Assembly: GCA_035079385.1 (NCBI GenBank)
Contig: JAVHKY010000010.1
Coordinates: forward strand, 2,790,001 to 2,854,000
Direction: 5' to 3'
Length of the DNA stretch: 64,000 nucleotides
Origin: Aspidiotus rigidus
Lineage: Eukaryota; Arthropoda; Insecta; Hemiptera; Diaspididae
The notes under the pieces were generated by a model that was not told the DNA's origin, ran no database searches, and worked only from the letters and a program-made list of their open reading frames with translations. A program made the position numbers and the translations under genes. This document shows positions 28,027 to 52,846 of the stretch, piece after piece. Position 1 is the first letter of the stretch. Each line of letters opens with the position of its first letter.

Positions 28027-29391
28027 AAAAGGCTCTAGCCGGGTAAGGGGAGGAAAATGGCCTTGGTCGAAAAATGTTTCAAATATCCGTCAAAATGTTG
28101 TCCCTAATGAGAAAACTCGAAACCCGAAAAATTGGACCCATCCGCAAACCCCCATATGGGCTGCAGAGTCATTTTTTGGCCTAAAATCCAAATGGCTGTA
28201 TCTCAGACAATAATGATCGCACAGCAATGTAACTTGGGCACATTTTAGGATATGCGAACGTTCATCCATGGTATTAAAAAAAAAAATCATCATTATATTT
28301 TCCTGAGTTTCTAGCAATAACAAAACTTCAAATTCGAATATTTAAAAAAATCGGAAGGGGGGAGGCACCTAGGGAAAATCATTCATTTGAAGCGCCATAT
28401 CATCTGCTAAAACATGCATTAGTACCATAGTCCTCGGTGAGGTGGAACATTCCCAAAAAAATAAATATTCAATGAATTTCTGTGATTTTTCCATCAATAG
28501 CTGAGTGAACTACGACTGCTACCGCAGAGGATATATTCAATTTTTCACTATTTTCAGACTGTTCCAGCGACTGGAGAATTGATTGACTATTTTTTTCAAA
28601 CTCGGCGGACGTGTTTACATTATAATCGACCTAATTGATGAACGAAATACCTCCGGGGTGAAAAAGTGGATTTTCTCACTTCTCTACTGTTTTCAGACTG
28701 TTCCAGCGACTAGAGAATTTTTCAACTATTTTTCTCAATCTAACGCACTCCACCTAATCCGTGGATGTGTTTACATAAGCATTGACCAAATCGATAAACG
28801 AAATACTGAAAATATATTTTTGGTCTATCTACATTCCCATTTCATCTCGAGGAGGAGTGCGTATTTTTCAGCTCGAACATTGACTATTGATTTCACGCGG
28901 TCTATTGCGGTAGCAGTCGTGGTTCACCCCGCTATTGATGGAAAAATCACAGAAATTCATTGAATATTGATTTTTTTGGGAATATTCCACCTCACCGAGG
29001 ACTATGGTACTAACGCATGTTGTAGTAGATGGTATGGCGCTTCAAATGAATGATTTTCCCCAGGTACCGTCCCCCTTCCGATTTTTTTAAATATTCGAGT
29101 TTGAAGTTTTGTTATTGCTAGAAACTAAGGAAAATATGAATGATTTTTTTTTAATACCATGGATGAACGTTCGCATATCCTAGAATGTGCCCGAGTTACA
29201 TTGCTGTGCGATCATTAATGTCTGAGATACAGCCATTTGGATTTTAGGCCAAAAAATGACTCTGCAGCCCCTATGGGGGTTTGCGGATGGGTCCAATTTT
29301 TCGGGTTTCGAGTTTTCTCATTGGGAACAACATTTTGACGGACATTTGGAACATTTTTCAACCAAGGCCACCCCCCCCTCCCCTTTACCCG
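28027..29391. mobile_element. Large foldback element, ~500-bp arms, split at its right end by the Maverick-like element
   Basis: Left arm about 28,027-28,530 and right arm about 28,905-29,391 are mirror images with scattered differences, around a ~375-bp centre. Both arms read the same 60-codon frame (EKTRNPKNWTHPQTPI), one on each strand. The left tip is AAAAGGCTCTAGCCGGGTA. The matching right tip is cut off at ...TACCCG (29,391) and resumes 23 kb away at 52,847-52,859 (AGTAGAGCCTTTT). The larger element therefore jumped into the last ~20 bp of this one. No transposase is present and no clear target duplication was found. Confidence 0.8.
29386..29391. repeat. Left 6-bp target-site duplication TACCCG
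   Basis: Identical hexamer at 52,841-52,846 on the other side of the Maverick-like element, each copy directly abutting the AG or CT terminus. Confidence 0.8.
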
Positions 29392-29775
29392 AGTAGATAA
29401 GATATATTCCTTCTGGCGCACTTCCTAATTTCTCTAGCGCAGAGCACAATTTACTCATTTTTCAACCTCTTCAAAAATCCTAGAAATGGTTCAATTTTTC
29501 ATCATGAATATTTGATTGTTTTTAAGCTAAATATGAATCAATTCACCATATTTTTCTTCCAAGCTAGTTCGAAAATTTCAGAGTTTTTGTATCAATTCTG
29601 TATCAATTTTCTATATTTTTACCATAAATATATATCACTCATGAGAGCTATAATCTAACTCTCCTAAAATATGAGAAATGTAAGAATTTTCCTTCTGGTG
29701 CAGTCAAGCGCAGAAACTATTTTCTCTCAATTTCTGTCATTTTTCATTCAATTTTAAAAATCCTAGAAATCATCC
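29392..29775 (+). repeat. Left terminal inverted repeat of the Maverick-like element
   Basis: Mirrors about 52,457-52,840. Shared landmarks include CCTTCTGGCGCACTTCC, CCAAGCTAGTTCGAAAATTT, GAGAGCTATAATCTAACTCT and TTTTCCTTCTGG. Similarity fades inward into repeat-rich sequence on both sides, so the inner limit is approximate. Confidence 0.8.
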
Positions 29776-29959
29776 AATTTTTCAACTATATAATTAGCTG
29801 TTTTTAAACTAAATATGAATCAATTCACCCTATTTTTCTTCCAAGCTAGTTCGAAAATTTCAGAGTTTTGTATCATTTCTGCATCAATTTTCTATATTTT
29901 TACCATAAAATAAATCTCTCGTGAGAGCTACTTTCCAATACTCATGAAAATGTAAGAAA

Positions 29960-30620
29960 TTCAAATTTTTCATTCTAGCATACATTTTGTATCAATTTGT
30001 ATACAATTTGTATCAATTCTAACAGAAATTCAAGGAGTCGAGAATTTTGATTGCTTTTATATCAATTTGCATACAATTTGTATCAGTTCTGAAAGAAATT
30101 CAGAGGTTTAAAAATTTTCATATATTTTATATCAATTTGTATACAATTTGGATCAGTTCTGAAAGAAAATTCAGAGGCTTAAAAATTTTCATACATTTTA
30201 TATCAACTTGCATACAATTTGTAATAATTTTAGAAAAAATTTAACGAGTCAAGAATTTTCATACCAATTTGCATACAATTTGTATACTATATTATTATTT
30301 TTTAAGGAAATTCAAAGAGTTAAGAATTTTCATACATTTTTGTATCAATATTTGTATCAATTCTAACAGAAATTTAAGGAGTTAAGAATTTTGATTAATT
30401 TTATATCAATTTTCATACAATTTGTATCAGTTTGGAAAAAAAATCAGAGGCTTAAAAATTTTCATATATTTTATATCAATTTGTATCATTTATAAAAAAT
30501 TTAGTAGAGTAAAAATTTCCATACATTTTATATCAATTTGCATACAATTTATGTCAATTTTAGAATAAATTTAAGAAGTTGAGAATTTTCATACATTTTT
30601 ATGTCATTTTGTATAATTTA
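29960..30620. repeat. Tandem array, ~68-bp unit, about nine copies
   Basis: The unit contains TTTTATATCAATTTGCATAC, then AATTTGTATCAGTTCTG and a CTTAAAAATTTTCATA end. Starts are near 30,057, 30,126, 30,194, 30,264, 30,336, 30,399, 30,469 and 30,527. It lies between the left terminal repeat and the first gene of the Maverick-like element, where subterminal arrays could bind replication or transposition proteins. Confidence 0.75.
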
Positions 30621-30638
30621 ATAAATGATGTAAAAATA

Positions 30639-30923
30639 TTACTTTATTACGTGTCCACATATTGTACACCAAAGAAGTGTTCCAAATTTGCTCCTAGAAT
30701 GTTGAGTTTTTGCTTTACATTTGTAACAATTAAATTTAAGTTTCTCATCATGCTCACTACAATCCACAAATCTAATAAGAGTGGTTTCACATTGAGGACA
30801 TGTACTCATTTCTTTTTTTAGATAAGGTCTAACTTTTATTGTCTCAATTGATTGATTAGTTGATTTTAAACAAAGTTTACAATATCTTGTCAAAGTATAC
30901 ATCTTGTTTACTAGATGAATCAT
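30639..30923 (-). CDS. Zinc-ribbon-like small protein of the Maverick-like element
   Basis: 94 codons with three Cys pairs or more: CKLC near residue 15, CPQC near 42, then CYKC and a closing WCTICG (residues ~66-90). This is the spacing of tandem zinc ribbons such as those of viral transcription or elongation factors, but I cannot match it to a named family. Very AT-rich. It is transcribed away from the neighbour at 30,981, with only 57 bp between their starts, so the two probably share a promoter region. Confidence 0.55.
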   Translation of the reverse strand: MIHLVNKMYTLTRYCKLCLKSTNQSIETIKVRPYLKKEMSTCPQCETTLIRFVDCSEHDEKLKFNCYKCKAKTQHSRSKFGTLLWCTICGHVIK

Positions 30924-30980
30924 ATTAATAGTTCTTATTATTATTTCAATATTTTCATTTAGAAAATTTATTCTATCTAA

Positions 30981-31280
30981 ATGGAGGTCTACAAAGATTC
31001 TTTAGTTGATGAAGATGAATTTGATTTTGAGAATGTTATACCATATTTTAAGGAACCTATTGCTAGAACAAGATCAAATTATGAAACTTTAATGGATCCA
31101 CTTTCTGATAAAATTCAACATTTATCTGAAGATAAAAGAATAAAATATACTAAATTTATGGTAAATATTATTGCTCATTTAAGTGCTTTATCAAGAATTA
31201 TTGAAAGAGAAATAAAAGATCTAAATATTCCTAATAATGATTTAAAATCCGATATTGAAATAAATTATGCACGTAATTAA
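30981..31280 (+). CDS. Unrecognised 99-aa protein of the Maverick-like element
   Basis: Intact acidic, helical frame (MEVYKDSLVDEDEFDFENVI ... KFMVNIIAHLSALSRIIERE). No Cys cluster, signal peptide or membrane segment. Its stop overlaps the end of the convergent gene at 31,277-31,480 by 4 nt, the sort of tight packing seen in DNA viruses and Mavericks. Function unknown. Confidence 0.5.
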   Translation: MEVYKDSLVDEDEFDFENVIPYFKEPIARTRSNYETLMDPLSDKIQHLSEDKRIKYTKFMVNIIAHLSALSRIIEREIKDLNIPNNDLKSDIEINYARN

Positions 31281-31547: not shown

Positions 31548-34500
31548 TTAATTTTCAATATTATTAAGAGTTTTCAAATGCTGAATAAATTTATCTCTCG
31601 GTATTGTATTATGATAGCCCCAAGGTAATGTATCAGTTTGTCCATTAATTAAACATCTTTTATCATCAAATGCACTTAATCCTCTTTTATTCTGTTCAAT
31701 AGTATAAATATCATGTCTTGTACTCCTTATCATCTTCTGTTTAATAGTCTTAGTTATTTTCTTTTCCAAACACATCTTATAATCATTATGAGTTACCTAT
31801 CTGATTTTTAATAATATTTTTCTTTACTCCTTTAGCTTTTTTCATTACATCATCATTTGATGCAAACGTTTTATTAGAATATAATTTTGAAGCTAATCCT
31901 ATAAATTCCTCTAAAATTTTCCCATTCAACTCATCTTTAAATTTCCCTAATACCTTTTTATTCACTTGTGGTAAGCCATAAATATTATCTTTCTTATAGT
32001 CTGATGTATCGAATTCATTAATCATACCTTTCATATCTTCATAGAAGTCTTCTGTTTTTATACTTAGAAATAATTAATGAATCTGTATCTGTATATAATA
32101 ATTTTATTCTATCTCCATATCTTTCTTTTAGTCTATAATAGAAATCATACATTAATGTCTTTGAAATATCTAAAATAGCTACTCCTACATAAATTGGTTG
32201 ATTGAATTTAATCATTGTTCTTTTCATTTGAACAGCTGCGAGATTTTCTCCAAAAAATGTTGATTTCTCAAAATTAGGTTTTGAAACATACTTAGTATAT
32301 TTTTTACCTTCTGAAATTAATTTTATATCCACATGCTTCCTAACATTCATCATTGTTCTACCAAAAACAGAATTATTCATTAGTTTAAAGAAATCTTTCT
32401 CAAAATCATTTTTAGCTTCTTGTCTTAATTTTGTATTCTTTTCTATATATTGTTTCATCCAATCAGATTGATCAAATTTTATAACTCTATGTATTTTCTC
32501 TAATTTTAATCCAGCTTTAAGAGCTTGTTTAAGATTTAAGTAATGAAGAACATACTTCTTTTTATCATATAATGTTATAAATAATTTTGGAAGTTGTTTA
32601 TCATCAATTACATTTTCAGGACAATAAGGTAAATCAGAATGCTTTTCCCATAATTCTTCAGGATATTTCAAATCTACTTCGAAAAGATATCCAAGCTTCT
32701 GATCATCTTTCATTTTCATAATTCTTTCTTCATTAAAATATTCTGGATTTCTCCATTCAAATCCTCCATATGGTAAATATTTACACATAGCCCATCCATA
32801 TAAATTATTTGCATCTAAATATTGAATAAATACAGAATCCTTAGTTTTATCAAATTTCTTTCCCATATATTTATTATTAGCCTTTGCATATCTATTTGAA
32901 CATTGAGAAATTCCTCCTCGTTTAGCCCTTTCAAACATTAATAACATATCTACATCAGTTAATAATTCTAACTTTTGTTTAGTAGTTTTCAGCATACAAT
33001 CCCAAGCAAATCCAGGAGTTGTATAATACCAAACTGGATCTAATTTATAAATTTTAATCGATGTCTCTCTAAAATTTTCCATGATATCAGTCAATAAGAG
33101 TACATCTATAGTATTGTATAATATATGTAAATTCTTTCATATTTTTTATATTAAAATATTTACAAATTTCTTGTGCATAATGATATTCTCCATCATCAAC
33201 ATGTTCATCATTTAAAAGATTATAAAAGTTTTCTTTTAAGGGTAATTTTGTTTCACTATACTTTTCTAAAGAATTCATATAATCATATGGATAAGCTAAT
33301 TTTTTACTTAATAATTTGAATAAATACTTTCTTTCCATCTCAGATAGATTTTTAGATACTTTTTCATTGAACTATTTCTTTAAATTTTTGAAGTGACATC
33401 TTTTTAAATTTTTAGCTAATTCAGATAATGAACTTGATAGAAATTTATATGAATCTAAAAATCTCAACTCAATATTATAGTTAAGTGTTTCACCTTTTGA
33501 ATTTTTTAAACCTGAATCATATTTTACAATTTTAGAAAATGATATATATTTTTCTTCATTATTTGGTATTAATTTAATATTATCATAAGGCTCTCCAAAT
33601 TCTCTAACAAATAAATGTGCATCATATCCAGAGAAATTATGAAAATAAATTGGAATAAATCTAGGAACTCTATAATTAAGATTACAAACATTATGAGCTG
33701 CTCCTCTATATTCTCCAGTTAAATGATCATGATCTCTAACTTTTATTTTATTACCAAATTCACTTCCACGTGCAACATCTAATAGTTCTTCTAATTTTGA
33801 TAGTTCGTCATTAAGTTCTCTTTTCCTATCATCTTCATTTTCTATCTTCAATAAAATATTATGAATAATATCAATTTTTTTATTCAATACTCGAATTTCT
33901 TTTTCCACAAGAGGTGGTGTATCTTCAAGTTTTCTTTCACAGATGTGACATTTTTTAGTAAATTTATAGTCCATTTTTTGTGTCTCAGATAATTCTTTCA
34001 TTTTTATTTTCTTATCTAAGTATTCTCTTGCAATGAAAATTGCGTCTTCTTTTAATTTCTCGTACAATTTCTTTGGAGCATCTAAACCAAAATATTCAAA
34101 TGATTTTGTTGAATTTCTCCATTAGCGTACTTAATATAATAGACAAAACTAATTGGAAAATGTCTTTGAAGCTTTATTGTATAAGATTCATACTTCTGAA
34201 CTTCTTCTTTAGTCTTCTTTAATTTTTTACTTAGTTTTTCTATCTTTTCATTCAACTGTTTCATTTTATTAAGCTTTCTTATAAGACTTTCAAAATCAGC
34301 ATATATAGCAAATGGAGCTTTCATCGAATGATTGTAATTTTTAAATTCAACAATGTTGTTAGCTTTATCAGGTAAAATTACTTTTGCAGGTTTATTTAAT
34401 CCGCAATAATTTTTATGATCTGATAATACTTTTTCACAAGGAAAGCTATTCAAACACATTTTACGAAGATATCTCTTCTTATGATCTTTTGTCAATTGAT

Positions 34501-35446
34501 GTCTTCCAACTAGTTTCCACAAATCTTTAATTAAGCAGTAATGAGTCTTTCCTTTATTATCTTTTAAAAACAATAAATCAATATGATTTTCTTTTTCATC
34601 TTTATAGTTATTGATAATGGATAGATTTTATGACTATTATTATGATGATATATTAATTGATAATCCTCCTTCAACCATATTATATTTATTTACTCTATTT
34701 ACAAATTTATTACTATCATCAACTTTAACTGGAAATTCTATCCCTTTTAGAGCTTTATCAAACATATTTTCATGTTTTTTATATTTAGCTACTCTTTGTG
34801 GATCTTTATCTACTGGAAATAGTCCACTTAAAATAGACCATAAATAACATTTATCATCATTCTCATTTTTAACATTTATGGTAGCTTTCTTGCTTGCTAG
34901 AATTTTAGGAAGTTCAATATATGAACTAGCTATCATCGGATCGTATCTGTTTATATTAATTCTGAAAATATCAATTGATATTAAAGTCCATTGACTATTC
35001 TCTAAACTATCCTCTATATTTTCATGTCTTTCAATTATATAATCACTAATAGTATCATACATTTCATTCATGTTAGTTTCACGAAGAAATATATAATTTT
35101 CAGTTTGTAAATGCATTTGAGCAGTCTCAAGAACTTCTGTATTACCTCTTCTTTCATAAGTTGCTGTAACACAGAAATTAGCTCTAATTCCATTGTGTGA
35201 ATTTATCCATTTTCTAAGAAGTCCAAAAGTAGGTTTTTTCATAATATCTAAAAACTCTTCCAAATCTTGTATACCCCATTCATTTTGAATTTCAAATTGA
35301 GTATGTCTGCTTCCAAAATGTTCAACTACAAATCTAGGTATAATTTTTAAATTCTTCTCCTTATTCGGTCCAAATATATCTTCATTATTTCCTTCAAACT
35401 TGAATGGAGTTCCAGTAAGCCATGTATTTATTTCTTCTTTTGTCAA
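31548..35446 (-). pseudogene. Protein-primed family B DNA polymerase (DNA_pol_B_2 type), broken
   Basis: Minus strand, ~1,300 codons in pieces 35446-34640, 34573-34082, 34067-33372, 33338-33087, 33094-32039, 32034-31786 and 31775-31548. In order they show an N-terminal region with SSYIELPKILASKKA; the exonuclease motif YADFES near 34,300; RDHDHLTGEYRGAAHNVC and FHNFSGYDAH; polymerase motif A YLDANNLYG near 32,815; motif B NNSVFGRT near 32,370; motif C YTDTDS near 32,095; and the C-terminal DDKR...TLPWG. Catalytic aspartates of motifs A and C are visible. At least six frame changes or stops interrupt it, so this copy is probably dead unless the breaks are assembly errors. Such enzymes replicate linear genomes of Mavericks and related DNA viruses from a terminal protein. 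Confidence 0.85.
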
Positions 35447-35458
35447 TGTAAAAGTGAT

Positions 35459-35725
35459 TCACATTTGATGTGGTTGAAGTAATCTGGATTGAGTTAATTT
35501 TTGTAATAATATAAAATATAATTCATTCATTTTTTCTACTACTTCTCTTCCTCTAAAAGCTATATAAATTCTATACTTTCTTAAATAGTGTTCTATTTGT
35601 CTTGTAGTTTTATTTGCATAGAAATTATGCACTTTAAAAAACTGAATCCATTGACTAATTTTTGAGTCTTGTCTTCCAGTTTCATTTCTGATAACAGTTA
35701 TAGTGATCTGATTTCTTGTATTCAT
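35459..35725 (-). CDS. Unrecognised 88-aa protein of the Maverick-like element
   Basis: Basic frame (IQFFKVHNFYANKTTRQIEH, LRKYRIYIAFRGREVVEKMN) ending 12 nt before the polymerase start, so probably co-transcribed with it. No named domain recognised. Its position directly upstream of the polymerase is worth noting for a replication accessory role, but that is inference. Confidence 0.45.
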   Translation of the reverse strand: MNTRNQITITVIRNETGRQDSKISQWIQFFKVHNFYANKTTRQIEHYLRKYRIYIAFRGREVVEKMNELYFILLQKLTQSRLLQPHQM

Positions 35726-35768: not shown

Positions 35769-36176
35769 TTATTTTTTTCCAATGAGATGATATTTTGATT
35801 TTAAATGTGTTTTATAGGATATAGAATATATAACTGCACCACAAGTACATGTCATTAGGTGTTTTCTTTTTTCATAATCATTTTTCATAATTTCTTTCAT
35901 TTTTTCTTTATTTCTTTTATAATATTCCTTAGATGAGGTATTCTTACATTCTTTACACCAGTTTGGTGTTCTACCAAATTCGTGTTTATTCTTCATTTTT
36001 TTACATCTAGTACAATATTTACCACTTTCATATAAATTCATTATAGATGTTAATTCTGTTAGAAATTCATCAACACTATATTCTTTAAAAGTTGACCCTA
36101 TCATCTCTGAATCTACAAAAGTTGTCTTACAAGTATCACATAAAGCATGATCAGTATCCATGGTATCTACTTGCAA
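35769..36176 (-). CDS. 135-aa zinc-cluster protein of the Maverick-like element
   Basis: Shows CDTC (residue ~13), CTRC-KKMKN (~56), WCKEC (~73) followed by a basic helix (YYKRNKEKMKEIMKNDYEKR), and CTCGAVIYSISYKTHLKS with a final Tyr-His, giving C-x-C...H...H. The last part resembles the KH-x-K-x-x-H zinc modules common in large DNA viruses. Likely nucleic-acid binding. It is followed 44 nt downstream by the 88-aa gene and the polymerase on the same strand. Confidence 0.55.
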   Translation of the reverse strand: MQVDTMDTDHALCDTCKTTFVDSEMIGSTFKEYSVDEFLTELTSIMNLYESGKYCTRCKKMKNKHEFGRTPNWCKECKNTSSKEYYKRNKEKMKEIMKNDYEKRKHLMTCTCGAVIYSISYKTHLKSKYHLIGKK

Positions 36177-36480: not shown

Positions 36481-37191
36481 TTATTTTTTATTTTTAATAA
36501 TTATTTCATCATTATCCTTAATTCCTCTTGGTGCATCTCTTCCATTCAAACCAAATTCTTTTTTCTTTTCATTAATATACTTTCCATTTACTATTATTTG
36601 TAAATTATCAACATTAATATATCCATCTTCAATTTTAAAATCAGAAAAGCAAACTCCTAAATTTTCAGTAAATTCTGCAATACTATTAGCCTTTGTCTTA
36701 CCAAAATTCATAGGAGTCACAACAATTTGATTTTTCAAGTCAATAATTTTTTTATTTTTTAGCTGCATAGATTCTACTTGTTTTTTACCTTTTTCACTCA
36801 ATTCCTTCTTCATTTCTTCTAATTCTTTATTTAATTGTTTCATTCTTTTATTATTTTCTTCAATTATATCATCTTTTTGTTTCATTACTTGATTATTAGC
36901 TTGGGATAATCGCTTTAATTGACCTCCTGCTTTATTAACTGCAGCCATTAATACCCTAAAACAGAAAAATAAATTTGTAACTTTTAAAATACATATTTTC
37001 TCATTTTCAAATTCCGTCAAATCAAGATTATTTTTCTTATAAACTTCATGTAATTGATTAATTATAGTTTGACTCGATGATTTAATTGTATCTTTTAATT
37101 CCTTTATTTCTGGATACTTTGAAACTAGTAAATTGACATAATCCATTTCATCCTTTGAAATTGAGTAATTATTAATTACTGAGAGAATCAT
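36481..37191 (-). CDS. 236-aa coiled-coil protein of the Maverick-like element
   Basis: N-terminal helical domain (~1-75), a short hydrophobic stretch VTNLFFCFRVLMAAV (~70-84), a long Lys/Glu coiled coil (~92-155, with NKELEEMKKELSEKGKKQ) and a C-terminal beta-rich part with GRDAPRGIKDNDEIII. The hydrophobic stretch coincides with TTTTTCTGTTTTAG on the minus strand, just before an ATG at 36,948 (MAAVNKAGGQLKRLS). The gene may therefore start there or be spliced there. No capsid-type jelly roll could be recognised by eye. Confidence 0.5.
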   Translation of the reverse strand: MILSVINNYSISKDEMDYVNLLVSKYPEIKELKDTIKSSSQTIINQLHEVYKKNNLDLTEFENEKICILKVTNLFFCFRVLMAAVNKAGGQLKRLSQANNQVMKQKDDIIEENNKRMKQLNKELEEMKKELSEKGKKQVESMQLKNKKIIDLKNQIVVTPMNFGKTKANSIAEFTENLGVCFSDFKIEDGYINVDNLQIIVNGKYINEKKKEFGLNGRDAPRGIKDNDEIIIKNKK

Positions 37192-38591: not shown

Positions 38592-38689
38592 ATTGATCGT
38601 TTCAAAATTGATAACACATTTTTGTTTACTTTCGTTTTGGTAGGAAGTTTTCTATACTTGCATATGGGGACAAGAGTGGGCGCGAATCA

Positions 38690-39190: not shown

Positions 39191-39342
39191 CCTCTTGTGG
39201 GGAATAAGTGGTTTTCAAGTTTTGCTCAAAAATGAAAGAGTTTCATGAAAAATTGCCAAGAACAAAAGTTGTAGCCGTTGAAATGTTCTTTTAGAAATGG
39301 TCACCTTGAATTTTTCAAAATAGAGGTGTTTTACATGTAATA

Positions 39343-40327: not shown

Positions 40328-40330
40328 AAT

Positions 40331-40347
40331 TGGTGTCAGGTGTGGGG
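40331..40347 (+). other. Putative primer-binding site
   Basis: TGGTGTCAGGTGTGGGG begins with TGG three bases after the LTR, as expected for pairing with the 3' CCA end of a tRNA. I have not identified the tRNA. Confidence 0.55.
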
Positions 40348-41704: not shown

Positions 41705-41707
41705 TAT

Positions 41708-44700
41708 TTGCAGGAGACTCCTTCAGAAAGTTCTGAAAATAATCAAGAATCTTCTGTGGGGAATCCAACAATTGATAAAAAACGTCTCCTGACCGAGATG
41801 AGAATTATTGACCTGCAACTCAAGGGATTGACTGTCACTATCGAAAAGGGTGATTTTGGAAGAGCCAAGGGGGCCACCGAAGGCCTCAAACTGAGAATCC
41901 AAAAAATCAGAGAAAACACCGATCTGTTGAATGATCCTACTGCCCAAACTGATTTACAAGAGCGCATTTCTAAGGCAAATGAGGAGCTTTTGTTGCTACA
42001 GGAAGCTGCTAGTTTAGATCTGGGCCCAGTAGAAAACCCTCTCTCTTACAATCGTAGTGTAGCGGGTTATCATTTGAAAAATCCAGCCTTGCCCAAGTTT
42101 GGCGGCAATATCCGGGAATGGCCAGCGTGGTGGGGCCACTTCGATAAGGCCGTGCATTCTAGAGAAACTGGGAAAGGTACAAGACTGCTTCAGCTGGAAA
42201 ATGCTCTGACTGGTGAAGCTAAGAGCTATTACACTGATATGAATCCAACTGCCGATCAGTATGATCAGGTTGTCGCGCAGTTAAGAGCTAAGTATGGGGA
42301 TCCTATCAAACTAGGTCAGCAATATTATGCCGACTTAGTAGCTTCTCCTAGGGGAATTAATCAAGAGTTGCTGTCAGCTAGGCAACTCCAAGTAAAAACG
42401 GATCGTGTCACCCTTGAAAAGGTGAAGGCCATACTTATGAATCTTCAATCTGTGGACAACCGATTCGACCCTACTCTTCTAACCAGCCAAGTCGTTCAAA
42501 AGTTTTCTTACGAAACTATCCTGACTGTCAACCACATTGTTGTTTTTGGCAACAAGAAGCTAGACATTACTAAGGATACTGAAGGCATTCTAAAGTTGGT
42601 TGAACAAGTCCTGACGTCTGAAGAGGCTCTGTTCACCCAACTATCTGCTGAAAACAGTAAACCTGAAGCCACCTCGTCAGTAGCCATCACATGCGCGGTG
42701 AAGCGTTCTACTCCTCAAACATCTAGTGGTACAACTAAGAAGAAGAGATCCGCAAACTCTAATAAGTGCCTCTTCTGCAAAGGGAACCACCTTTCTTCAG
42801 CATGTACTCGTTATCCATGTATCTCTACCAGGACGGAGGCCTTGAAAAAGGAGAGTCGATGTGTCACTTGCACAGCATTAGATCATGGTTCTGAGGCTTG
42901 CCCTCACAAACTACGCACCTGTAGATACTGCCAAACACCTGGACATTGTCGGCCCTTGTGTAAAAAGCTACTAGTGAAAGCTATCAAAACAGGTACGTTT
43001 CTACAAACCTTTCAATGCATACTAAAAGGTAACTCAGGTGAGATAATTATTAGAGGTATACTTGATGGTTGTAGCGATACTTCTTATATTACTTATAGCG
43101 TAGTAAGACGTTTACAAATTACTGTACATAATGCTACCTTTCTAAATGTTTTTGGGTTTGGGGCCGCTAGCCCTACAGTCACCAAATCTGGTTCAGTTGA
43201 GGTAATACTCTATAATAAGAGGGGTAGAGGGAAAACCTGTACTCTCTTTACCACTCCTTCTATCCTCAATGAATCTAGACTCTCGCCTCCTCCGCAAATC
43301 ACCTATCAGTTGCTACCCTCCCAACTGAACTATGCGGATCCTGATTTGTTCTTAGAGAGTCCTCAACCTATTAACTTATTAATTGGTAGCGATCTATACT
43401 TTCATTTTGTCTCTGTCAAAAAGAGTATGGAACCCTACGATGGATTTGCCATCCTAAAAACATTTTTTGGATGGATTCCTGCTGGCTGTATTCCTAACCA
43501 CTTTGAGATGAAGCCAAACAAATTCTGTTTAGCTTCAAGACAAAGTGAACCCTCAACTTTGATAAATGAAAAGGAATCTCTCACAAAGGAACTTGAATTG
43601 CTATGGAGTCTAGAGGCTTTTGGAATAAGATCCAACGAGCTTAACTCTTCTGAAGACCTTGTCCTCAAGCAGTTTGAAGAAACAGCCAGAGTTGAAAATG
43701 GACGCTTCATTGTCACATGGCCTTGGAAACAAGGATGTCGAAAAATACCTAGCATTTTCAGAATGGCTAAAGCTAGGCTTCTCAGCCTCCTGAATGTAAC
43801 TCCTGAATCTTTGCTACAGAGGATGGATGAGATATTTCAGGAGCAACTACAAGATGGAGTAATCGAACCTGCTCCACAAGACACTCCTTACCCCATACAC
43901 TATTTACCTTTTAGACCTGTCTTACGCAAGGGAAAGGTCAGAGTAGTATATGATGCTTCGGCAAAGGGGAAGACAGGAATTAGCCTCAATGAAGCCTTAC
44001 ATGCTGGTCCATCACTTATCTCTAATTTGGTAGGTGTAATCCTCAGATTTAGAGAGTATGCCATAGCCATCTCAGCAGATATTGAAAAGGCATTTCTAAG
44101 AGTAGGCCTTGATGTATCAGACCGAGATGTGGTCCGCTTTCTTTGGGTGGACGATTACAAAAGGGGTCATAAGGCCGAGATCAGAATCTTACGATTTGCG
44201 AGAGTAATATCGGCCCCTTACCTTCTCCATATGGTACTACACTCTCATTTGTCTGACGAACATCGCAACTCACTTTTCACCTTAGGTCGACGTAACTTCT
44301 ATGTTGACAACTTGGTGGTAAGTTTACAAACTGATACCGAAGCCTTACAACTAGCTGAAACTTTAATCAGCCACTTTGAGACTATAGGTATGAACTTGAG
44401 AGATTGGTGCTCAAATTCTCTTGAATTTGAACACGCCATTCCTCTTGAGAAAAGACATGAAGAGACTGATAATGTCAGTATACTGGGTCTTAGTTGGAAC
44501 AAATCTCTAGACCAATTAAGCATATCCTTTGAGGACATTCCAGTCTCAGAGACTGTCTCCACCAGGAACGCCCTCCAATGCCTAGGTCAGGTTTTTGACC
44601 CATTAGGGCTGGTCTCACCTTGTCTGATCAATCTCAAAGTATTTGTCAGAGACTGCTGGAAGTTGAAAGGCAAGCTAGACGACCCGCTCCCACCTGAATT

Positions 44701-46912
44701 TCTGGTTCGCTTCCGGAAATTGGTAACTGAGCGCTCCTCTATTAAGGATATCACAGTACAGCGTCACCTGTGGAGCTGTACCATCCCAGAGGCCTCCTAT
44801 CAAATGCATATTTTTTGCGATGCCTCCAAGATAGCCCTGGGTTGCGCTATCTACTTAGTAAGAGATAGTCCCAATTCTAAGAGCGAATCTCGACTCATCT
44901 TTGGAAAGTCAAGGCTCACTCCAGCCCAAGGTAGATCAATCCCTCAACTTGAGCTTATGGCCTTGTTAATGGGATGTCGCACATATTCCCTTATAATCAA
45001 AGAGATGAGTGTCCGCCCTAAGGAAATTGTCCTTTGGACAGACAACACCTCCGTCATTCAGTGGCTTCACTCAAATAAGATCCAGCCGATCTTTGTACAA
45101 AATAGGCTGAATGATATTAAGAAGTTTCCTAATGTCATAGTACGTCATGTACCCACCAAAGATAACCCAGCAGATATAGCCTCTAGAGGCCAATCCGCTG
45201 TGATACTCCGAAAGGAGACCCTGTGGTGGGAAGGTCCACACTGGTTAACTCATAAGAGCCTTTGGCCTTCTCCACCACCTCTAGCCCCCTCATATAGTTC
45301 TCCAACACAGACTATCACTCTCTTATCTAGAAAGGACATTGCTAATCACCAGTTACCCTCTGAACTGGAAAAGCGTTTCTCTTCTTGGTGGGCGTATAGA
45401 AAATTCTTCTACATTTGTATCAAGTGGATTTTCCGACGCCTCCCACCTAATTCATCTCTCTCCAACCGTCAAATGTGGTTAATAGCCGAACGCTTATTAA
45501 TCCACAAATTACAAAAGAGATACTTTTGCTCAGAACTCAATCTCCTCATTGCAGGCCATCAGCCTAAGAGCAACTTGAGCTTATTCTTAGGCCCTGACGG
45601 CTTGATACGAGTACGAAGCAGGTTACAAAATGCCCCAATCCTTTGGGACTCTGCTCATCCTATCCTGATGCCTCGCAATAGCGAGATCAGTACGGTTCTC
45701 CTGCGATCATTGCACACTAAGAACCTACACATTGGTGTGAGCCATCTTATCACAAAACTACGAGAGAAGTTTTGGATACCAAGAGTACGCCCCAAAGCCA
45801 ACTCTGTAGTCAAACGGTGCCAGAACTGCAATAGATGGCAAGGAGGTCCGTTTCAACTACCACCAATGCCACCCCTCCCATCTATCAGGATAGAAGAGGT
45901 GGCTCCATTTGTCCACACGGGTATCGACTATTTCGGCCCCATTTCTGTGAAGTCTGAGTACCCACAAAAAGGCATTGTGAAAATGTACGTGGTCTTATTC
46001 ACTTGCCTCAGAATTCGGGCCATCCACCTAGAAATAGCCGAGGACATGTCGGGAGCGGCCTTCTTAGAAGCCCTCACGACCTTTACTAACCTAAGAAGGA
46101 CACCTAAGGTAGTGGTGTCAGACAATGGCACAAACCTTACATTCGCACAGCCCTTAGTTGGGAAACAACTTGTTGAACTAAGTCCCGCAATAGACGAATT
46201 CTTTTCCTCCAATAACATCCTATGGCACTTCAACCCAGCGGGCGCTCCATGGTATGGTGGCGCGTGGGAAAGTCTTGTAGGAGTCACTAAGCGTTGTCTA
46301 AAACGCACTGTAGGTAACCTCATACTCACACCAAGAGCCACACAACGCCTCTTGTATCAGGTTGCGGACGTGATCAATAGTAGACCCATTGCAGGAATAT
46401 GTTCAGATGAACTTATTGAAGCATTGACGCCCAACCACTTCTTAAGGTTGGGAGGTAGCAACGTCAACACACAACTTGACGTTGACATCACCAAAATCCT
46501 CCCAACCCTACAGAACACAGTCCAGGCATACACACAAATACAACAGTATGTCGCCCGTTATAATGAAATATTTCGCCAGGAATATTTCAATTACCTCAAG
46601 GGAACTTACCCAGCTAGACATCGCCATCCTCGGGGATCTCACAGCTTCCGCCCTAAACCTGGGGACATAGTTCTTCTTAAAGAACCGCTAGCTGTCAGAG
46701 CCGACTGGCCTTTGGGTATTGTAGAGGAAGTGTCACATAGACAGGCGCATGTCAGAGTTTCCCACAAGGTAGCTGGACTTGACCTACCTAGAGATCGCAC
46801 CACAGGCTCAAGAGTCAAGTTAGTTCCTTTCAATAGGATTTACCCTTTGGAGCTACCAGACCATGTGTCATCCAAACCCTCTGAGCCCAATGCTACTACC
46901 CCTGCCAGGTAG
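41708..46912 (+). CDS. BEL/Pao gag-pol polyprotein
   Basis: One open frame of ~1,735 codons. Gag: LPKFGGNIREWPAWWGHF (~130). Three zinc-knuckle-like Cys/His clusters at ~350-420 (CLFCKGNHLSSAC, CVTCTALDHGSEAC, CRYCQTPGHCRPLC). Aspartic protease at ~452, with ILDGCSDTSYI where LDSGS is usual. RT at ~745-870 with VRVVYDASAKG and the YVDN form of the YxDD box. RNase H at ~1035-1160 (FCDASKIALG, LELMAL, WTDNTS, VPTKDNPADIASRG). Integrase with H-H-C-C, then D (GIDYFGP), D (SDNGTN) and E (GGAWES). C-terminal PGDIVLLKE domain. Gag, protease, RT, RNase H, IN order is typical of BEL/Pao. There is no env. The nominal start is not an ATG; translation may start at 41,798 or from a spliced exon. Confidence 0.95.
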   Translation: MQETPSESSENNQESSVGNPTIDKKRLLTEMRIIDLQLKGLTVTIEKGDFGRAKGATEGLKLRIQKIRENTDLLNDPTAQTDLQERISKANEELLLLQEAASLDLGPVENPLSYNRSVAGYHLKNPALPKFGGNIREWPAWWGHFDKAVHSRETGKGTRLLQLENALTGEAKSYYTDMNPTADQYDQVVAQLRAKYGDPIKLGQQYYADLVASPRGINQELLSARQLQVKTDRVTLEKVKAILMNLQSVDNRFDPTLLTSQVVQKFSYETILTVNHIVVFGNKKLDITKDTEGILKLVEQVLTSEEALFTQLSAENSKPEATSSVAITCAVKRSTPQTSSGTTKKKRSANSNKCLFCKGNHLSSACTRYPCISTRTEALKKESRCVTCTALDHGSEACPHKLRTCRYCQTPGHCRPLCKKLLVKAIKTGTFLQTFQCILKGNSGEIIIRGILDGCSDTSYITYSVVRRLQITVHNATFLNVFGFGAASPTVTKSGSVEVILYNKRGRGKTCTLFTTPSILNESRLSPPPQITYQLLPSQLNYADPDLFLESPQPINLLIGSDLYFHFVSVKKSMEPYDGFAILKTFFGWIPAGCIPNHFEMKPNKFCLASRQSEPSTLINEKESLTKELELLWSLEAFGIRSNELNSSEDLVLKQFEETARVENGRFIVTWPWKQGCRKIPSIFRMAKARLLSLLNVTPESLLQRMDEIFQEQLQDGVIEPAPQDTPYPIHYLPFRPVLRKGKVRVVYDASAKGKTGISLNEALHAGPSLISNLVGVILRFREYAIAISADIEKAFLRVGLDVSDRDVVRFLWVDDYKRGHKAEIRILRFARVISAPYLLHMVLHSHLSDEHRNSLFTLGRRNFYVDNLVVSLQTDTEALQLAETLISHFETIGMNLRDWCSNSLEFEHAIPLEKRHEETDNVSILGLSWNKSLDQLSISFEDIPVSETVSTRNALQCLGQVFDPLGLVSPCLINLKVFVRDCWKLKGKLDDPLPPEFLVRFRKLVTERSSIKDITVQRHLWSCTIPEASYQMHIFCDASKIALGCAIYLVRDSPNSKSESRLIFGKSRLTPAQGRSIPQLELMALLMGCRTYSLIIKEMSVRPKEIVLWTDNTSVIQWLHSNKIQPIFVQNRLNDIKKFPNVIVRHVPTKDNPADIASRGQSAVILRKETLWWEGPHWLTHKSLWPSPPPLAPSYSSPTQTITLLSRKDIANHQLPSELEKRFSSWWAYRKFFYICIKWIFRRLPPNSSLSNRQMWLIAERLLIHKLQKRYFCSELNLLIAGHQPKSNLSLFLGPDGLIRVRSRLQNAPILWDSAHPILMPRNSEISTVLLRSLHTKNLHIGVSHLITKLREKFWIPRVRPKANSVVKRCQNCNRWQGGPFQLPPMPPLPSIRIEEVAPFVHTGIDYFGPISVKSEYPQKGIVKMYVVLFTCLRIRAIHLEIAEDMSGAAFLEALTTFTNLRRTPKVVVSDNGTNLTFAQPLVGKQLVELSPAIDEFFSSNNILWHFNPAGAPWYGGAWESLVGVTKRCLKRTVGNLILTPRATQRLLYQVADVINSRPIAGICSDELIEALTPNHFLRLGGSNVNTQLDVDITKILPTLQNTVQAYTQIQQYVARYNEIFRQEYFNYLKGTYPARHRHPRGSHSFRPKPGDIVLLKEPLAVRADWPLGIVEEVSHRQAHVRVSHKVAGLDLPRDRTTGSRVKLVPFNRIYPLELPDHVSSKPSEPNATTPAR

Positions 46913-46992
46913 GTTGGATAGATATGTTATAGTTACATTACTGTAGTCTATTTATCCCCTTCCTCCTCAAACAGCCCTCAAGGCAAGTACTG

Positions 46993-47002
46993 CCCGGGGG
47001 AG
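46993..47002 (+). other. Polypurine tract
   Basis: CCCGGGGGAG directly abuts the TG of the right LTR, where plus-strand DNA priming occurs in LTR elements. Confidence 0.6.
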
Positions 47003-47987
47003 TGTCGAAAATAGCGACCACCAACGTCACTATTTCGACTTTCGATCAAGCTATCGAAATTAAACTATCGAGGCTGTAGAAACCTCCAGCCATGACGTCA
47101 CATCACAAAATCACGAACCTTGCTCAGACAACCTAAAAGTTTGTTGACAAGGTTGACAAGCGAGGATAGCATTGAGCGAAATCACACAATCCTATCTCTG
47201 GTTATTAGTGCGTAAACACTGTTAACTTTGCGTTTTGTGACTGGTGTAGCTAAATTAACATTTAATAATTACTTATATTATATTTGTGAAGATGGAAGAT
47301 GGAATCTCAAAGGTCAGTTTTCTAATGATAGCTTCTCCTGAAGCGTTGACTTGATCCGTCTTCATCTGAGTTAGCCCCATAATGGTCTTCACTCGATCTT
47401 TCGATCTTTCCTTTGCTTTATCTTGTACTTTGATAAGATAATTTACTGGAATTCTGACTCTATATGACTAACGGTAACTCTTTCTTTCTGTTGCCGTTAG
47501 GTAAGACGGAAGCCGGCGCCGACGGAGTATGATCGTCACTCTTAATATTAGCTTCCTTTGCAACGAAGACATCAACCTTTAATTTTATCTTGAAGATGAT
47601 TATTGTTTCCTTTCTTTTCTAATAAATGCATCCTGTCATTTAGAATGTTTCCTTTCGCTAGAAGTAGAGTTAGCTGTCCTACAGGAAATTTCCGGCGCAA
47701 GTCCAATGTGGCTTGCGTCGGTTGTTTTGCGTAGAATGGATCGAGAGTCTGGAATGTTACATACGCGTCCGCCTCCTGGAGCGATCGAACCCTGTTTACC
47801 ATTTCGCTTCGAGTGGCGCTACAATCGCGATACTCTAATTGAACCGGTAATAGTGAAGCACGCAGTCTCAAGCTTTGCTCGCTTCTCCAAATTTACTATT
47901 TGTCCTATTCTTTATCAAACTAGGCCGGTCATATCGATCTTCTCCTTTCGATGTTAGTTTGATTATTTCTGGTAAGAATATCCGACA
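47003..47987 (+). repeat. BEL/Pao right LTR
   Basis: 985 bp, appears identical to the left LTR, followed by the duplicated TAATA. Confidence 0.95.
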
Positions 47988-48317
47988 TAATATCTCCGCC
48001 AAAACGAAAGTAAACAAAAATGTGTTATCAATTTTGAAACGATCAATAGGCTTATCGTGATGATTATGTTCACGCGAAACGCGGATTCGAATTGTGTGTA
48101 TATAGCGCCTCGCGCCTGCCTACAAGCAGAGAAGAATTCACTCCAGTAATCATCGTTAGAAATTTGTACGAAATTATTTCAGAAAATACATTATTGCTGT
48201 CGGGCAATCATTTCAGTTTGAATACTATCGTAATAAATCCGCTTGACGTAAAGAACGCTGCAACAAAAACATTTCGTGTCAGGTGTCAATACGTGCCGTG
48301 ATTTTATATTTCTAAAC

Positions 48318-50816
48318 ATGTCTGTTAAAGGTGGCGTTACAGGCTTTGTCGAAAAAATGATGCAATTGACCATGAACAGACAGGAGAATATCCCTGAACC
48401 AAATCTTAAAGCGCGAATATTTGCGGCAGTGCATTTTATTCTCTGTAGATGTTACGGTTGTCCTTTTTTAGGTGGTATTGTTGAAGATAGAGGGTGGCCG
48501 TGTGCTCGCCTCTTCCAAAGAGGAGAGGCGATATATACATTGGATGACAGAGAAATGCGAGTAACCATTTTGAATGATGCATCATTCTACTATTTATACG
48601 TTTATGTAAGTTCAATTCAGTTTCCCTTCATATTTTTTAACCATGTGAGAATAATTCAGTGACCTGTTCCATTTAGTTTCCACCGACCGAGACGTCGTAT
48701 TTTATTCTCGACATAAGTCAACCTATAGTGCCTTTATTTGAATCTACGAATGAAGAAGATGAAGTCCCTGTAGATGGTAAAGCGTTCACGTTGGATGTTT
48801 CAATACACGTCAACTTCGTGCGTTCATTGAGTTCAAGAATTGGATCTGATATTTTAAACAAAATGTACGTACTTGTGTCTATTCCGGCTTATTATGTTTT
48901 ATTGTACGTGAGATTTCTTGGTTTTATGTATCTCGTTATAATTTTTGAATGTAGAGAAAATTCAGTCATTCGTAAGAATGAATTCAGCATGATATTGATA
49001 AGCTTCTCTATTCCGAAAAAACCAAAGGGTCCGAAGAAGCGTAAGGCAGCAGCATCTGAAGCGACATCCTCAGACCCGAGTAAGAGTTTGTGAAATAATT
49101 GACCAGAAGAAGTAGATGAGAGGTATGAGATGAAGATTGGTAAATAATAGCAAATCTCAATGATAAAATTTCCGTAAGAGGTTACATTCGAAGTACCTGC
49201 ATAACTGCTCAAGATGATCAGCAGCTACCTCAGCTGTCGAGAATCCCACGCACAGTAAAACTTGTGGTACATCGCATTTAACGGGATCTTCAAGGTAAAG
49301 CTGCCTTTAAGCTTCAAGCTAATCTGCTACGCGGTTAACATACCAAAGGTATGCACTCTCGAAACAACTGTAGCGGTGGAGATCAGGGTAAATAAGGCTC
49401 TAGAGGCAGTGACAGACTAGAACTCGCTGTAGGAAAGATACAGGCCACATTATGTACGACCCGCCACCCACCTTTCGCCTGCAAGGTGTGAAAATCACGA
49501 TTGAGAAGGTGATAAAGTATCTTGGCATCTGGTTTGACTCAAAGTTGAGCTTCAGATACGATTTCCTGATAGCAGCGGAAAAAACGGGGTTCCTGAGCCA
49601 CTTGATGACAAACCTAGGAGGACCGAGGGAATCAAGAGAAGAAGGATGATGATGAGCACCGCTTTATGGTACCCAAAAACCGGCTAACTCCACAAAGATG
49701 GCGCACAGAAGAAAAAATATGGAAAAGATCGAACGAAGAGTTGCACGAAGGTCAAATCCTAGACTCACGTCCGACTCCCAGATACAAATCTATAATTGAG
49801 GCATAAGTTAGAGATGCATTAAACCAATGACTCAGCTTGTAAGCCCACCCAAAAAGACCAATTATAATGAAAATGCAGAAATATTCTTGAAAAGAAGATT
49901 CAAGCTTCGAATGGACCCGTTATATGACTGTTGTACAAAATGATATTAAGTAAGGCAGCCCAAAAATTAGGGCCATAAGACATGGATACCGAAAATAGCC
50001 AAAATAGGTGAGAGCAGTTCCCCAATCATGAAGAACAATTACGAGAAAAAGAAGCGAGTAGGTCAAGCATATCCTCGAATTTTCTGAAAAAATTGGTAAT
50101 CCTTTTTAGATGTCATTTTCCCTTGTGTGTTTCGAATAGTGCATGATTACGTTACCTACTACAATTGCATTATTAATATTATGATGATTACTCGACGTTA
50201 ATTTTCAGCTGTACGTGCTAAAACATCGGATCTTCACTCAGAAATTCTCAAACTGGTTCCCAATAATTGTAATATTGGTAGTAAATTGATGGGCTCAATT
50301 TTGTTCATCGCCTGTGATGTTTATGCGTGCACGCTCGATACCGAAAGACATGAATGGCCAGTAGTCTTGGATTACTTGTCACAGAATTGAGTTACAATGG
50401 ATACATATACTTTTTCTCCCTACTCGAACATGAAACTAATTTTTACTTAACTGTCAGAGTAAGTTTTTCAGATATTCCTTTTTTTTTTTTCATATCATCT
50501 AATGACGACACCTAATCATCCTGAATTTATTAGAATCGATCTTCTATTCTCATTGCGGCAAAAAAAATTCCAAAAATTGTGTGTCCCACTTTCACGGATT
50601 CTGACGTGAAAGTGGATAGCCTCAGAATATCGAGATTGTCTCGCTGGTTGAACCAGCTATTTCTGTCAGTGTAAGTATTTAGGTAGATATTCTTCTTAAT
50701 GTTTATAGAATCTGTTGTCAATGCAATACATATTTTTCAGAATCGAGAAAGATATTAACCGTCTTAGGGGAAGTGTTGGAAGTTCGATTAGAAGCTCTAC
50801 CTCATCGTTATGTTAA
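48318..50816 (+). CDS. Unrecognised spliced gene, seven exons, 318 aa, inside the Maverick-like element
   Basis: Exons 48318-48605, 48677-48864, 48955-49079, 50209-50277, 50385-50458, 50534-50670 and 50741-50816 sum to 957 nt with no stop until TAA. Every intron is GT-AG and all phases fit (GTAAGT, GTACGT, GTAAGA, GTAGTA, GTAAGT, GTAAGT). Seen in the product: a Cys-bearing helical start (RIFAAVHFILCRCYG), RVTILNDASFYYLYVYFPP, PVDGKAFTLDVSIHVNF, a basic stretch KKPKGPKKRKAAA (nuclear-signal-like), then LSYNGYIYFFSLLEHETNFY, RISRLSRWLNQLFLSVIEK and a Ser-rich end. Exon 3 could instead read through to TGA at 49,091, giving ~204 aa. The third intron holds an R1-type LINE scrap. It is less AT-rich than the polymerase block. 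I do not recognise the family. Confidence 0.6.
49440..49655 (+). pseudogene. R1/Jockey-type LINE reverse transcriptase fragment
   Basis: PTFRLQGVKITIEKVIKYLG IWFDSKLSF and AAEKTG...LMTNLGGPRESR are the end of the RT domain of R1-like non-LTR elements (KYLGVWFD... GGP-SR). Upstream, EVRVNKALEAV-like debris at ~49,395 may belong to it. It is only a scrap and lies within the third intron of the spliced gene, in the same orientation. Confidence 0.65.
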
Positions 50817-50829
50817 TTTTTTTTAATAC

Positions 50830-52456
50830 AGCTCAATAGATATACTGTTTCTTTTCTAATCCATCACGTATTTTCTCGATGTTCCTACGTACTTGCTCTA
50901 CGGTCGCCTACTTGCGAAACCTTCCACAGTCTTGGAATATCTTTATATTAATGCTGGTAAAAAAAAAAAAAAAATTACATGTTGATTTTTTAATCTAGGA
51001 AAACCTAAAGGTGTCAAAATTTGATGAAAATTTTTAAATGATTGTGTTATCATTATTATTACCATCATCTTTTTTTATTTTGTTTTCCTTATTTACTTTC
51101 CATCACATTTCTGATGGGTTCTTCTCAAAATAAGAATCGATGAAAAATTTCGACTAGATGAAAATTATTAATAGGCTCTTTTTTCCCAACCCGATACAAA
51201 ATTTTTCTTCTAACGAACAAATGTTGCATAACCAATGTGATGATACAAGCTCTGAATTGTTTTTTGTGATCAATTTTTATTCGTATTAGTCATTTATTTT
51301 AGTCGTTCGTCTTATAGACTGATGGTCTTTGTATTGATCGAATAAGTGAAAAAAATCGAAATTAATAGAGACGTCAAAATAGAAAACTGTCTATAAGAAT
51401 GTGTTGAAAGAATTTATTAAATAAATTTGTAATATATTACGTACTGTAAACGCAGTGTGTATCTAACATAGTATTTTGTTATTTTACATGTAGCTTAATT
51501 GTGTGACTTGATGGAAGGGTTCACCTATGATATTTTTAGAGTTAGAAATGAAGAAAAATGAAACAAAAAAAAGATACAAAAGTTTCAAAATTTTTTGAAC
51601 TGGTGGAGATATTGAGGGTGAAAAATTTGATTTCCTCTCCATTCGGAAATCACGCGAATACTCCCTTTCATTGTCGAGAGGTGAAAAAAATGAAAAAATC
51701 ATTCATTAATTTAGAGAGTCTAGTATGGAGAGGGAAGAAAAGTGAAATTGTTCATTATTTGCTATGGTAAACCTGAAAATAAACAGGATGAAAAAATGGA
51801 AGATTTTTAGGTTTTTTGAGAGGTGCAAAAATGGGGAAATCGTTCATTAATTTAAAGAAATTAGTAAGTACGCCAGCATATTGATGGTTGAAAGCTGGTG
51901 CAGAATTGTTTATCTTCATAGGACCTACGATAACTTTTTAGAGTTAAAAATAGAGAAAAATGATAGAAATTTGATACAAAACTTCTGAAATTTTTGAACT
52001 AGCAGAGATGAAAAAAAGAGTAAAATATTCAGGGAGGATTTTTGACATTTTTTGGGTCATTTGAAATTGAAAGAAAAATGCTAGAAATTAGCACCTGCGC
52101 TAGAACTTATAAGATTTTTTAAAATTCAATGAAAAATCAGAGAAATTAACCGCAAAATGAGAGAAATTACTCCCTGTGCTTCTTTTTGAGATTTTCGAAA
52201 TTAAAGGGAAAATCAGCGAAATTTCCTCCTAAATGAGAGAAATTACTCCCTTCGGAGATTTTTTAAATTCAATGAAAACTGAGAGAAATTAGTCCACTGC
52301 GCTAGAGGTTCACCTGCGATGATTTTTTAAGGTTTAAAAAAGAAAAAAATGATGGAAATTTGATACAAAACTTCTGAATTTTTCAAACCTGTGGAGAAGA
52401 AAAATAGATTGGAATGACGAACGTTTGCTGTAAAAACAATCAAATATTCGGTGTAG
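50830..52456. other. AT-rich repeat-like subterminal DNA of the Maverick-like element
   Basis: No gene. From about 51.5 kb, phrases such as TTGATACAAAACTTCTGAA, GAACTAGCAGAGATG and GAGAGAAATTACTCCCT recur irregularly, grading into the right terminal inverted repeat. It mirrors in style, not in exact sequence, the 68-bp array at the left end. Confidence 0.5.
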
Positions 52457-52840
52457 AAAATTAGAGTATTTCTAGGATTTTTTAGGTTAGTTGAAATTGA
52501 AAGAAATTGACAGAAATTAGTCTCTGCGCTTGACTGCGCCAGAAGGAAAATTCTTACATTTCTCATATTTTAGGAGAGTTAGATTATAGCTCTCACGAGA
52601 GATATATATTTATGGTAAAAATATAGAATATTGATACAGAATTGATACAAAAACTCTGAAATTTTCGAACTAGCTTGGAAGAAAAATAGGGTGAATTGAT
52701 TCATATTTAGCTTAAAAACAATCAAATATTCACGATGAAAATTGAAGAGATTTCTAGGATTTTTAGAGAGGTTAAGAGTAAATTGTGCTCTATTTTAGAG
52801 AAATGAGGAAGTGCGCCAGAAGGAATATATCTTATCTACT
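52457..52840 (-). repeat. Right terminal inverted repeat of the Maverick-like element
   Basis: Reverse complement of 29,392-29,775 with scattered mismatches. It ends ...CTTATCTACT, then the hexamer TACCCG and the displaced tip of the foldback element. Confidence 0.8.
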
Positions 52841-52846
52841 TACCCG

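What the first reader, a model, noticed from the sequence alone, without database searches (positions are those of the whole stretch)
29386..52846. A Maverick/Polinton-like element with clear ends but no visible integrase or capsid genes
The ends are directly visible: AG...CT termini, long terminal inverted repeats and the hexamer TACCCG on both sides. The only family-level gene I can name is a broken protein-primed family B DNA polymerase. The other small genes (zinc-ribbon, zinc-cluster, coiled-coil, HTH, acidic proteins) are not the usual capsid, ATPase, protease and integrase set. It is either an internally deleted or non-autonomous copy, or a lineage whose packaging and integration genes are too diverged to read by eye. 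With the BEL copy removed it is ~14.8 kb.
Basis: partly seen in the sequence, partly recalled or inferred. Interest (0 to 1): 0.88.

Follow-up and report, generated by a model that had tools for sequence, protein, structure and literature searches.

The report
Defective Maverick/Polinton-type viral element
This looks like the decayed remains of a virus-like DNA transposon that kept its two ends and a broken DNA polymerase gene but shows none of the genes needed to build a particle or insert itself, an ordinary fate for such elements.

Summary
A 23,449-bp unit (29392-52840) has AG...CT ends, ~520-bp inverted repeats (85% identical) and TACCCG on both sides; the other arm of the fold-back repeat it entered preserves an uninterrupted version of the site. 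The left 8.4 kb (about 25% GC) holds a family B DNA polymerase broken by four frame changes and five stops, 45-49% identical (best segment) to polymerases of three public contigs, one of which also carries an rve integrase and a packaging-type ATPase. This copy shows neither, and no capsid or protease. Outside the polymerase pieces and the nested BEL no open frame exceeds 238 codons, so an intact but unreadable integrase or major capsid gene is unlikely unless split by introns. The interior (37.8-51.0 kb) is GC-richer: a young BEL/Pao copy inside a small inverted-repeat element, and one or two intron-bearing genes of unknown origin. Best reading: a defective, internally replaced Polinton/Maverick-type element. 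Whether genes were lost before or after insertion is open: the host genome could not be searched and no paper could be opened. Low to moderate interest.

The parts
29386..29391 (.). target-site duplication TACCCG (left copy)
   Evidence: empty-site comparison
29392..29910 (+). left terminal inverted repeat, starts AGTAGATAAG; contains part of an internal direct repeat (29455-29696 with 29737-29976)
29979..30625 (+). subterminal degenerate tandem array, period about 70 bp
30642..30923 (-). 94-aa zinc-ribbon-like protein, frame open
   Evidence: PHROG 1474 (unknown function) E 2.2e-4; codon score 0.14; zinc-ribbon label by eye
30981..31280 (+). 99-aa acidic protein, frame open
   Evidence: codon score 0.45
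31551..35458 (-). family B DNA polymerase with an endonuclease-VII-like insertion, broken; stop-to-stop frames 31551-31796, 31789-32073, 32042-33136, 33090-33371, 33375-34121, 34085-34627, 34643-35458
35462..35725 (-). 88-aa open frame upstream of the polymerase; possibly its N-terminal remnant
   Evidence: position; codon score 0.18; no family match
35772..36176 (-). 135-aa Cys-rich protein resembling endonuclease VII, Cys/His C-terminal end
   Evidence: PHROG 1035 endonuclease VII E 1.3e-6; weak similarity to the L002 GIY-YIG protein, E 0.002 in a single comparison
36481..37191 (-). 236-aa coiled-coil protein, frame open
   Evidence: frame length; helices to residue 153 in a single-sequence model, mean pLDDT 71.9, poor from 149 on
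37353..37715 (+). 120-aa protein, frame open; HTH by eye only
   Evidence: codon score 0.24; no Pfam match
37800..51000 (.). GC-richer interior (31-50%) inside the AT-rich element; boundaries approximate
38592..48047 (.). small inverted-repeat element (perfect 49-bp arms 38592-38640 / 47999-48047) that BEL entered; no clear target duplication seen
39343..47987 (+). BEL/Pao retrotransposon, identical 985-bp LTRs, TSD TAATA (39338-39342 / 47988-47992), uninterrupted 1735-codon frame
48318..49093 (+). gene A: three exon-like pieces with splice-like borders (by eye), no family match; the last two pieces can also be read as one open frame
50202..50823 (+). possible broken relative of gene A (gene B), tentative
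   Evidence: 1 of 55 piece pairs passed z 3: first pieces, z 6.4, 0 of 200 shuffles
52325..52840 (-). right terminal inverted repeat, ends CTTATCTACT
52841..52846 (.). target-site duplication TACCCG (right copy)

Best explanation
A single defective element of the Polinton/Maverick type. Shown: the ends, the 6-bp duplication, the precise insertion into a fold-back repeat, the broken polymerase, five open small frames in the same AT-rich half, the nested insertions, and the lack of any single frame long enough for integrase, major capsid or ATPase. Inferred: the ancestor copied its linear DNA by protein priming from the inverted repeats with this polymerase, and an rve-type integrase joined the AG ends to a 6-bp staggered cut. 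That integrase was either encoded in the part since lost or supplied by a complete relative. The polymerase then decayed, the other half was deleted or replaced, and a small inverted-repeat element and later a young BEL copy inserted.
For: Ends and duplication; empty-site match in the other fold-back arm; polymerase homology to L002 within its residues 193-1282, L002 carrying rve (PF00665 E 6.4e-8) and a Pox_A32-type ATPase (5.6e-11); conserved motifs and shared endonuclease-VII-like insertion in four sequences; DNA_pol_B_2 above its cut-off on one piece; five non-polymerase ATG frames of at least 94 codons against at most 2 frames of that length in any of 500 resamplings, with positive codon scores under a model trained on the polymerase; GC step near 37.8 and 51.0 kb.
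Against: No second copy could be looked for, so nothing shows that a complete relative exists in this host. Capsid-like proteins diverge so fast that those of the two IMG/VR relatives match each other only at E 4e-4 to 8e-4 over 50 columns, so similarity searches do not exclude capsid remnants. One weak match to an L002 protein other than the polymerase was seen (75-aa L002:7286 against frame 51552-51767, E 0.0088, 13.1 bits) and taken as chance. The codon test is not sharp: all 14 frames tested, gene A pieces included, beat their own other frames; only the absolute scores differ. The origin of genes A and B is unknown; they might belong to the element. Protein priming is inferred: the fold model is poor (pLDDT 40.2), and its first match, phi29 polymerase with terminal protein, has E 0.012 and TM 0.17.
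Confidence: 0.72

Rival explanations
1. A reduced, helper-dependent lineage: before insertion the element already consisted of ends, polymerase and small genes, copied itself, and borrowed integrase and particle from a complete Polinton.
For: Five small frames remain open with a coding-like signal while the polymerase is broken; 3' of the polymerase, where L002 has its integrase, there are two small genes and a repeat array before the left end.
Against: Only one copy seen; the GC-richer interior with nested mobile DNA looks like replacement.
Confidence: 0.18
2. A complete element whose integrase and capsid genes are too diverged to recognise.
For: The small proteins have no firm family apart from the endonuclease-VII-like one.
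Against: Longest frame outside polymerase and BEL is 238 codons, and its single-sequence model is mainly a long helix; rve and ATPase are detected by Pfam in the relative and not here.
Confidence: 0.04
3. Not a Polinton relative but another inverted-repeat DNA transposon that captured a viral polymerase.
For: No integrase or capsid gene ties the ends to the polymerase.
Against: AG...CT ends, long inverted repeats and a 6-bp duplication are what Polintons show (recalled, no paper seen); the polymerase lies in the AT-rich half that is continuous with the left repeat.
Confidence: 0.06

Closest known systems
Polinton/Maverick elements (features recalled; no paper could be opened)
   Same: AG...CT ends, inverted repeats of hundreds of bases, 6-bp duplication, family B polymerase of the protein-primed kind
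   Different: no rve integrase, ATPase, protease or capsid gene found; polymerase broken
IMG/VR contig IMGVR_UViG_3300028392_002905 (L001/L002; 13.8 of 17.4 kb held)
   Same: polymerase 48% identical over 378 aligned columns, same endonuclease-VII-like insertion, AT-rich (32% GC)
   Different: intact polymerase frame beside an rve integrase; GIY-YIG, fibre (Peptidase_S74), A32-type ATPase and capsid-like (label mine, no Pfam match) genes
IMG/VR contig IMGVR_UViG_3300007522_001028 (L004; 11.9 of 15.1 kb held)
   Same: polymerase 45% identical in the best segment
   Different: phospholipase A2-like and fibre genes, capsid-like frame (label mine); no integrase seen in the part held
JAKSBL010000530.1, a 4.6-kb contig binned as a Spirochaetes genome (L003)
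   Same: polymerase 49% identical in the best segment, endonuclease-VII insertion
   Different: short contig; probably mis-binned (inference)

Membership tests
Polinton/Maverick | AG...CT ends with long terminal inverted repeats | tested here: met
Polinton/Maverick | 6-bp target-site duplication | tested here: met
   TACCCG on both sides; empty-site comparison
Polinton/Maverick | protein-primed family B DNA polymerase | tested here: met
   present but broken; match to most of a polymerase that lies beside an rve integrase, DNA_pol_B_2 on one piece. Protein priming itself inferred; fold evidence weak
Polinton/Maverick | rve integrase | tested here: not met
   Pfam finds it in L002
Polinton/Maverick | packaging ATPase | tested here: not met
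   Pfam finds it in L002
Polinton/Maverick | double jelly-roll major and single jelly-roll minor capsid proteins | tested here: inconclusive
   no single frame long enough for the major one; the minor one and split genes not excluded, since Pfam misses the capsid-like protein of L002 and the two relatives find each other only at E 4e-4 to 8e-4
Polinton/Maverick | adenovirus-type cysteine protease | tested here: inconclusive
   no Pfam match in the frames scanned; no positive control at hand
Polinton/Maverick | further copies in the host genome | not testable with these tools
   The genome search unanswered in 13 of 13 attempts

The most novel reading that the evidence does not exclude
A helper-dependent satellite of Polintons: an element reduced to inverted repeats, its own polymerase, an endonuclease-VII-like protein and a few small proteins, using another element's integrase and particle, and carrying intron-bearing genes in place of the structural genes.
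Probability: 0.12. Interest if true: 0.6.

Novelty: new member of a known kind. Interest (0 to 1): 0.27.

Why it matters
It documents one Polinton-type insertion with an uninterrupted version of the target site preserved in the same window, in what looks like an insect chromosome (inference from flanking esterase and BEL sequences), and gives a set of small AT-rich genes to look for in complete relatives. If several copies lacked integrase and capsid genes too, it would be a satellite of a virus-like transposon; nothing here shows that.

Tried and rejected
Homologue search of the polymerase piece in the large protein database: switched off, not made. Single-sequence locus searches in viral contigs with two polymerase pieces and the coiled-coil protein found no relative. 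One degenerate motif pattern found L001, another found nothing. Alignment-based scans gave L002 (the L001 contig again), L003 and L004, and a further scan only L002 and L004 again. tblastn against phages: one weak polymerase hit, E 0.1. PDB sequence searches gave nothing meaningful. The fold model of the polymerase piece is poor, so its phi29 match counts as weak support at most. A third member of the gene A family at 38.2 kb: no pair passed z 3, dropped. A counterpart of the 135-aa protein beside the L003 polymerase: not supported (E 2.5). NCBIfam scan of 10 frames: nothing near a cut-off. The L002 75-aa match at 51552-51767 (E 0.0088) was taken as chance in AT-rich sequence.

Not answered: the genome search on the own genome, same request each time; paper searches and paper readings. 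No paper was seen in any form; statements on published Polintons are recalled.

Full report
Check of the observation. The unit runs from 29392 to 52840. Its two ends align in inverted orientation over 523 columns with 443 identities (E 2e-164), and over the first 309 bp 284 of 304 compared columns agree. It starts AG and ends CT, and TACCCG stands directly outside both ends. The insertion lies in the outer end of one arm of a fold-back repeat (28034-28526 against 28906-29397, 92% identical). The other arm gives a built-in control: the two flanks put end to end continue in alignment with it across the junction, 11 of 13 bases on the far side, and 0 of 1000 shuffles of the right flank reach that score (131 against a maximum of 127). 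The element's own first bases, AGTAGA, happen to resemble the target, so the uninterrupted left flank with element already scores 117; the gain comes from the last seven bases. The ends are well supported.

Contents, left half. From 29392 to about 37800 the sequence has 19-29% GC in 400-bp steps; beyond 37.8 kb it is 31-50%. On the minus strand between 35458 and 31551 lie pieces of a family B DNA polymerase. Seven stop-to-stop frames match one uninterrupted 1286-residue polymerase of the IMG/VR contig L002, best segment 48% identical over 378 columns, covering its residues 193-461, 507-1196 and 1244-1282. The reading frame changes four times and five stops fall inside, four of them within 34628-34642. 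The motifs in the aligned stretches (names recalled) are shared by the four sequences compared, and so is a Cys/His stretch resembling endonuclease VII (Pfam Endonuclease_7 E 4e-4 here, below its cut-off; E 1e-6 in L003). One piece passes the Pfam cut-off of DNA_pol_B_2.

Around the polymerase are open frames of 94, 99, 135, 236 and 120 codons. In 500 first-order resamplings of 29911-37800 the longest ATG frame averaged 71 codons and never exceeded 141; frames of at least 94 codons numbered 0.08 on average and at most 2, against nine observed, five of them not polymerase by my matching. Singly, the 94- and 99-codon frames are not beyond chance (95th percentile of the longest: 99). With a codon model trained on the polymerase pieces the five score 0.14 to 0.45 per codon (polymerase pieces 0.28 to 0.42, gene A pieces -0.03 and -0.07, a doubtful 85-codon frame 0.02); all 14 frames tested beat their own other frames, so only the absolute values tell them apart. 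They are probably real genes of the same element. The 135-aa protein resembles phage endonuclease VII (PHROG 1035, E 1.3e-6); the 236-aa protein is modelled as a long helix with a poorly resolved C-terminal part. None matched a capsid, protease, ATPase or integrase family.

Contents, right half. BEL/Pao occupies 39343-47987 with identical 985-bp LTRs, a 5-bp duplication TAATA and a 1735-codon frame with a Pao peptidase domain (E 4e-38). It sits in a small element with perfect 49-bp inverted arms (38592-38640, 47999-48047). Beyond lie gene A (48.3-49.1 kb, three exon-like pieces by eye), a short frame at 49413-49646 that by eye resembles a LINE reverse-transcriptase tail (no Pfam match), and a possible broken relative of gene A at 50.2-50.8 kb: 1 of 55 piece pairs tested passed z 3 (z 6.4, 0 of 200 shuffles), which for so many pairs is suggestive only. 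From 51.0 kb to the right end the sequence is again AT-rich (27-33% GC), without a long frame.

Missing genes. With tblastn, proteins of L002 (10) and L004 (9) found only the polymerase in the window at E below 0.1; phmmer with the L002 set added one match, the 75-aa L002:7286 protein to frame 51552-51767 (E 0.0088, 13.1 bits), which I take as chance. Pfam scans of 121 further frames gave no Polinton gene. As a control, the same library finds rve (6.4e-8) and an A32-type ATPase (5.6e-11) in L002 but misses its capsid-like protein, and the two relatives' capsid-like proteins find each other only at E 4e-4 to 8e-4. So similarity alone is weak for capsid. Frame length is the stronger argument: apart from polymerase pieces and BEL the longest stop-to-stop frame is 238 codons, though a gene split by introns would escape it.

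How it works. Most likely the ancestor was a virus-like transposon whose polymerase copied the linear genome from its inverted ends and whose rve integrase, own or borrowed, inserted it with a 6-bp stagger (inferred from the family). BEL's integrase is an unlikely agent, since BEL itself made a 5-bp duplication here. Later events in this copy: frame-breaking changes in the polymerase, loss or replacement of the other half, and two nested insertions, the BEL copy being recent because its LTRs are identical. Whether the loss preceded insertion (a helper-dependent form) or followed it is open.

Membership. The features of a Polinton that concern ends, duplication and polymerase are met; integrase and ATPase were tested and not met; capsid and protease were not found but the tests are not conclusive. 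It is therefore filed as a defective element derived from the Polinton/Maverick type, not as a complete Polinton. Relatives of the polymerase were found in two IMG/VR contigs and one stray contig; no annotated Polinton could be compared, so placement among named lineages (adintoviruses, virophages, Polinton-like viruses) was not tested.

Limits. The host genome could not be searched (13 attempts) and no paper could be opened (15 attempts), so copy number, complete relatives in the host and novelty against the literature are untested.

Noticed in passing
28034-29391: Fold-back repeat with ~490-bp arms, 92% identical, about 380 bp apart, into whose outer end the element inserted.
   Followed up: yes
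53154-53498 (-): Fragment of a tyrosine recombinase (Phage_integrase, E 2e-6) just outside the right end; not part of the element.
   Followed up: partly
17564-18297 (+): Carboxylesterase exons (COesterase E 2e-24 and 8.5e-6); frame 26786-27382 looks like a further esterase end by eye only.
   Followed up: no
59130-59483 (-): RNB (ribonuclease II-type) domain exon, E 3e-7.
   Followed up: no
3277-3617 with 54180-54515; 18946-19754 with 19987-20445 and 20874-21229: Further inverted repeat pairs, 85% and 92-96% identical, suggesting other mobile elements.
   Followed up: no
29979-30625: Degenerate ~70-bp tandem array next to the left inverted repeat; could be a replication or control region, or mere expansion.
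   Followed up: no
L003 (JAKSBL010000530.1): A contig binned as a Spirochaetes genome carries a Polinton-type polymerase; probably mis-binned eukaryotic or viral DNA (inference).
   Followed up: partly
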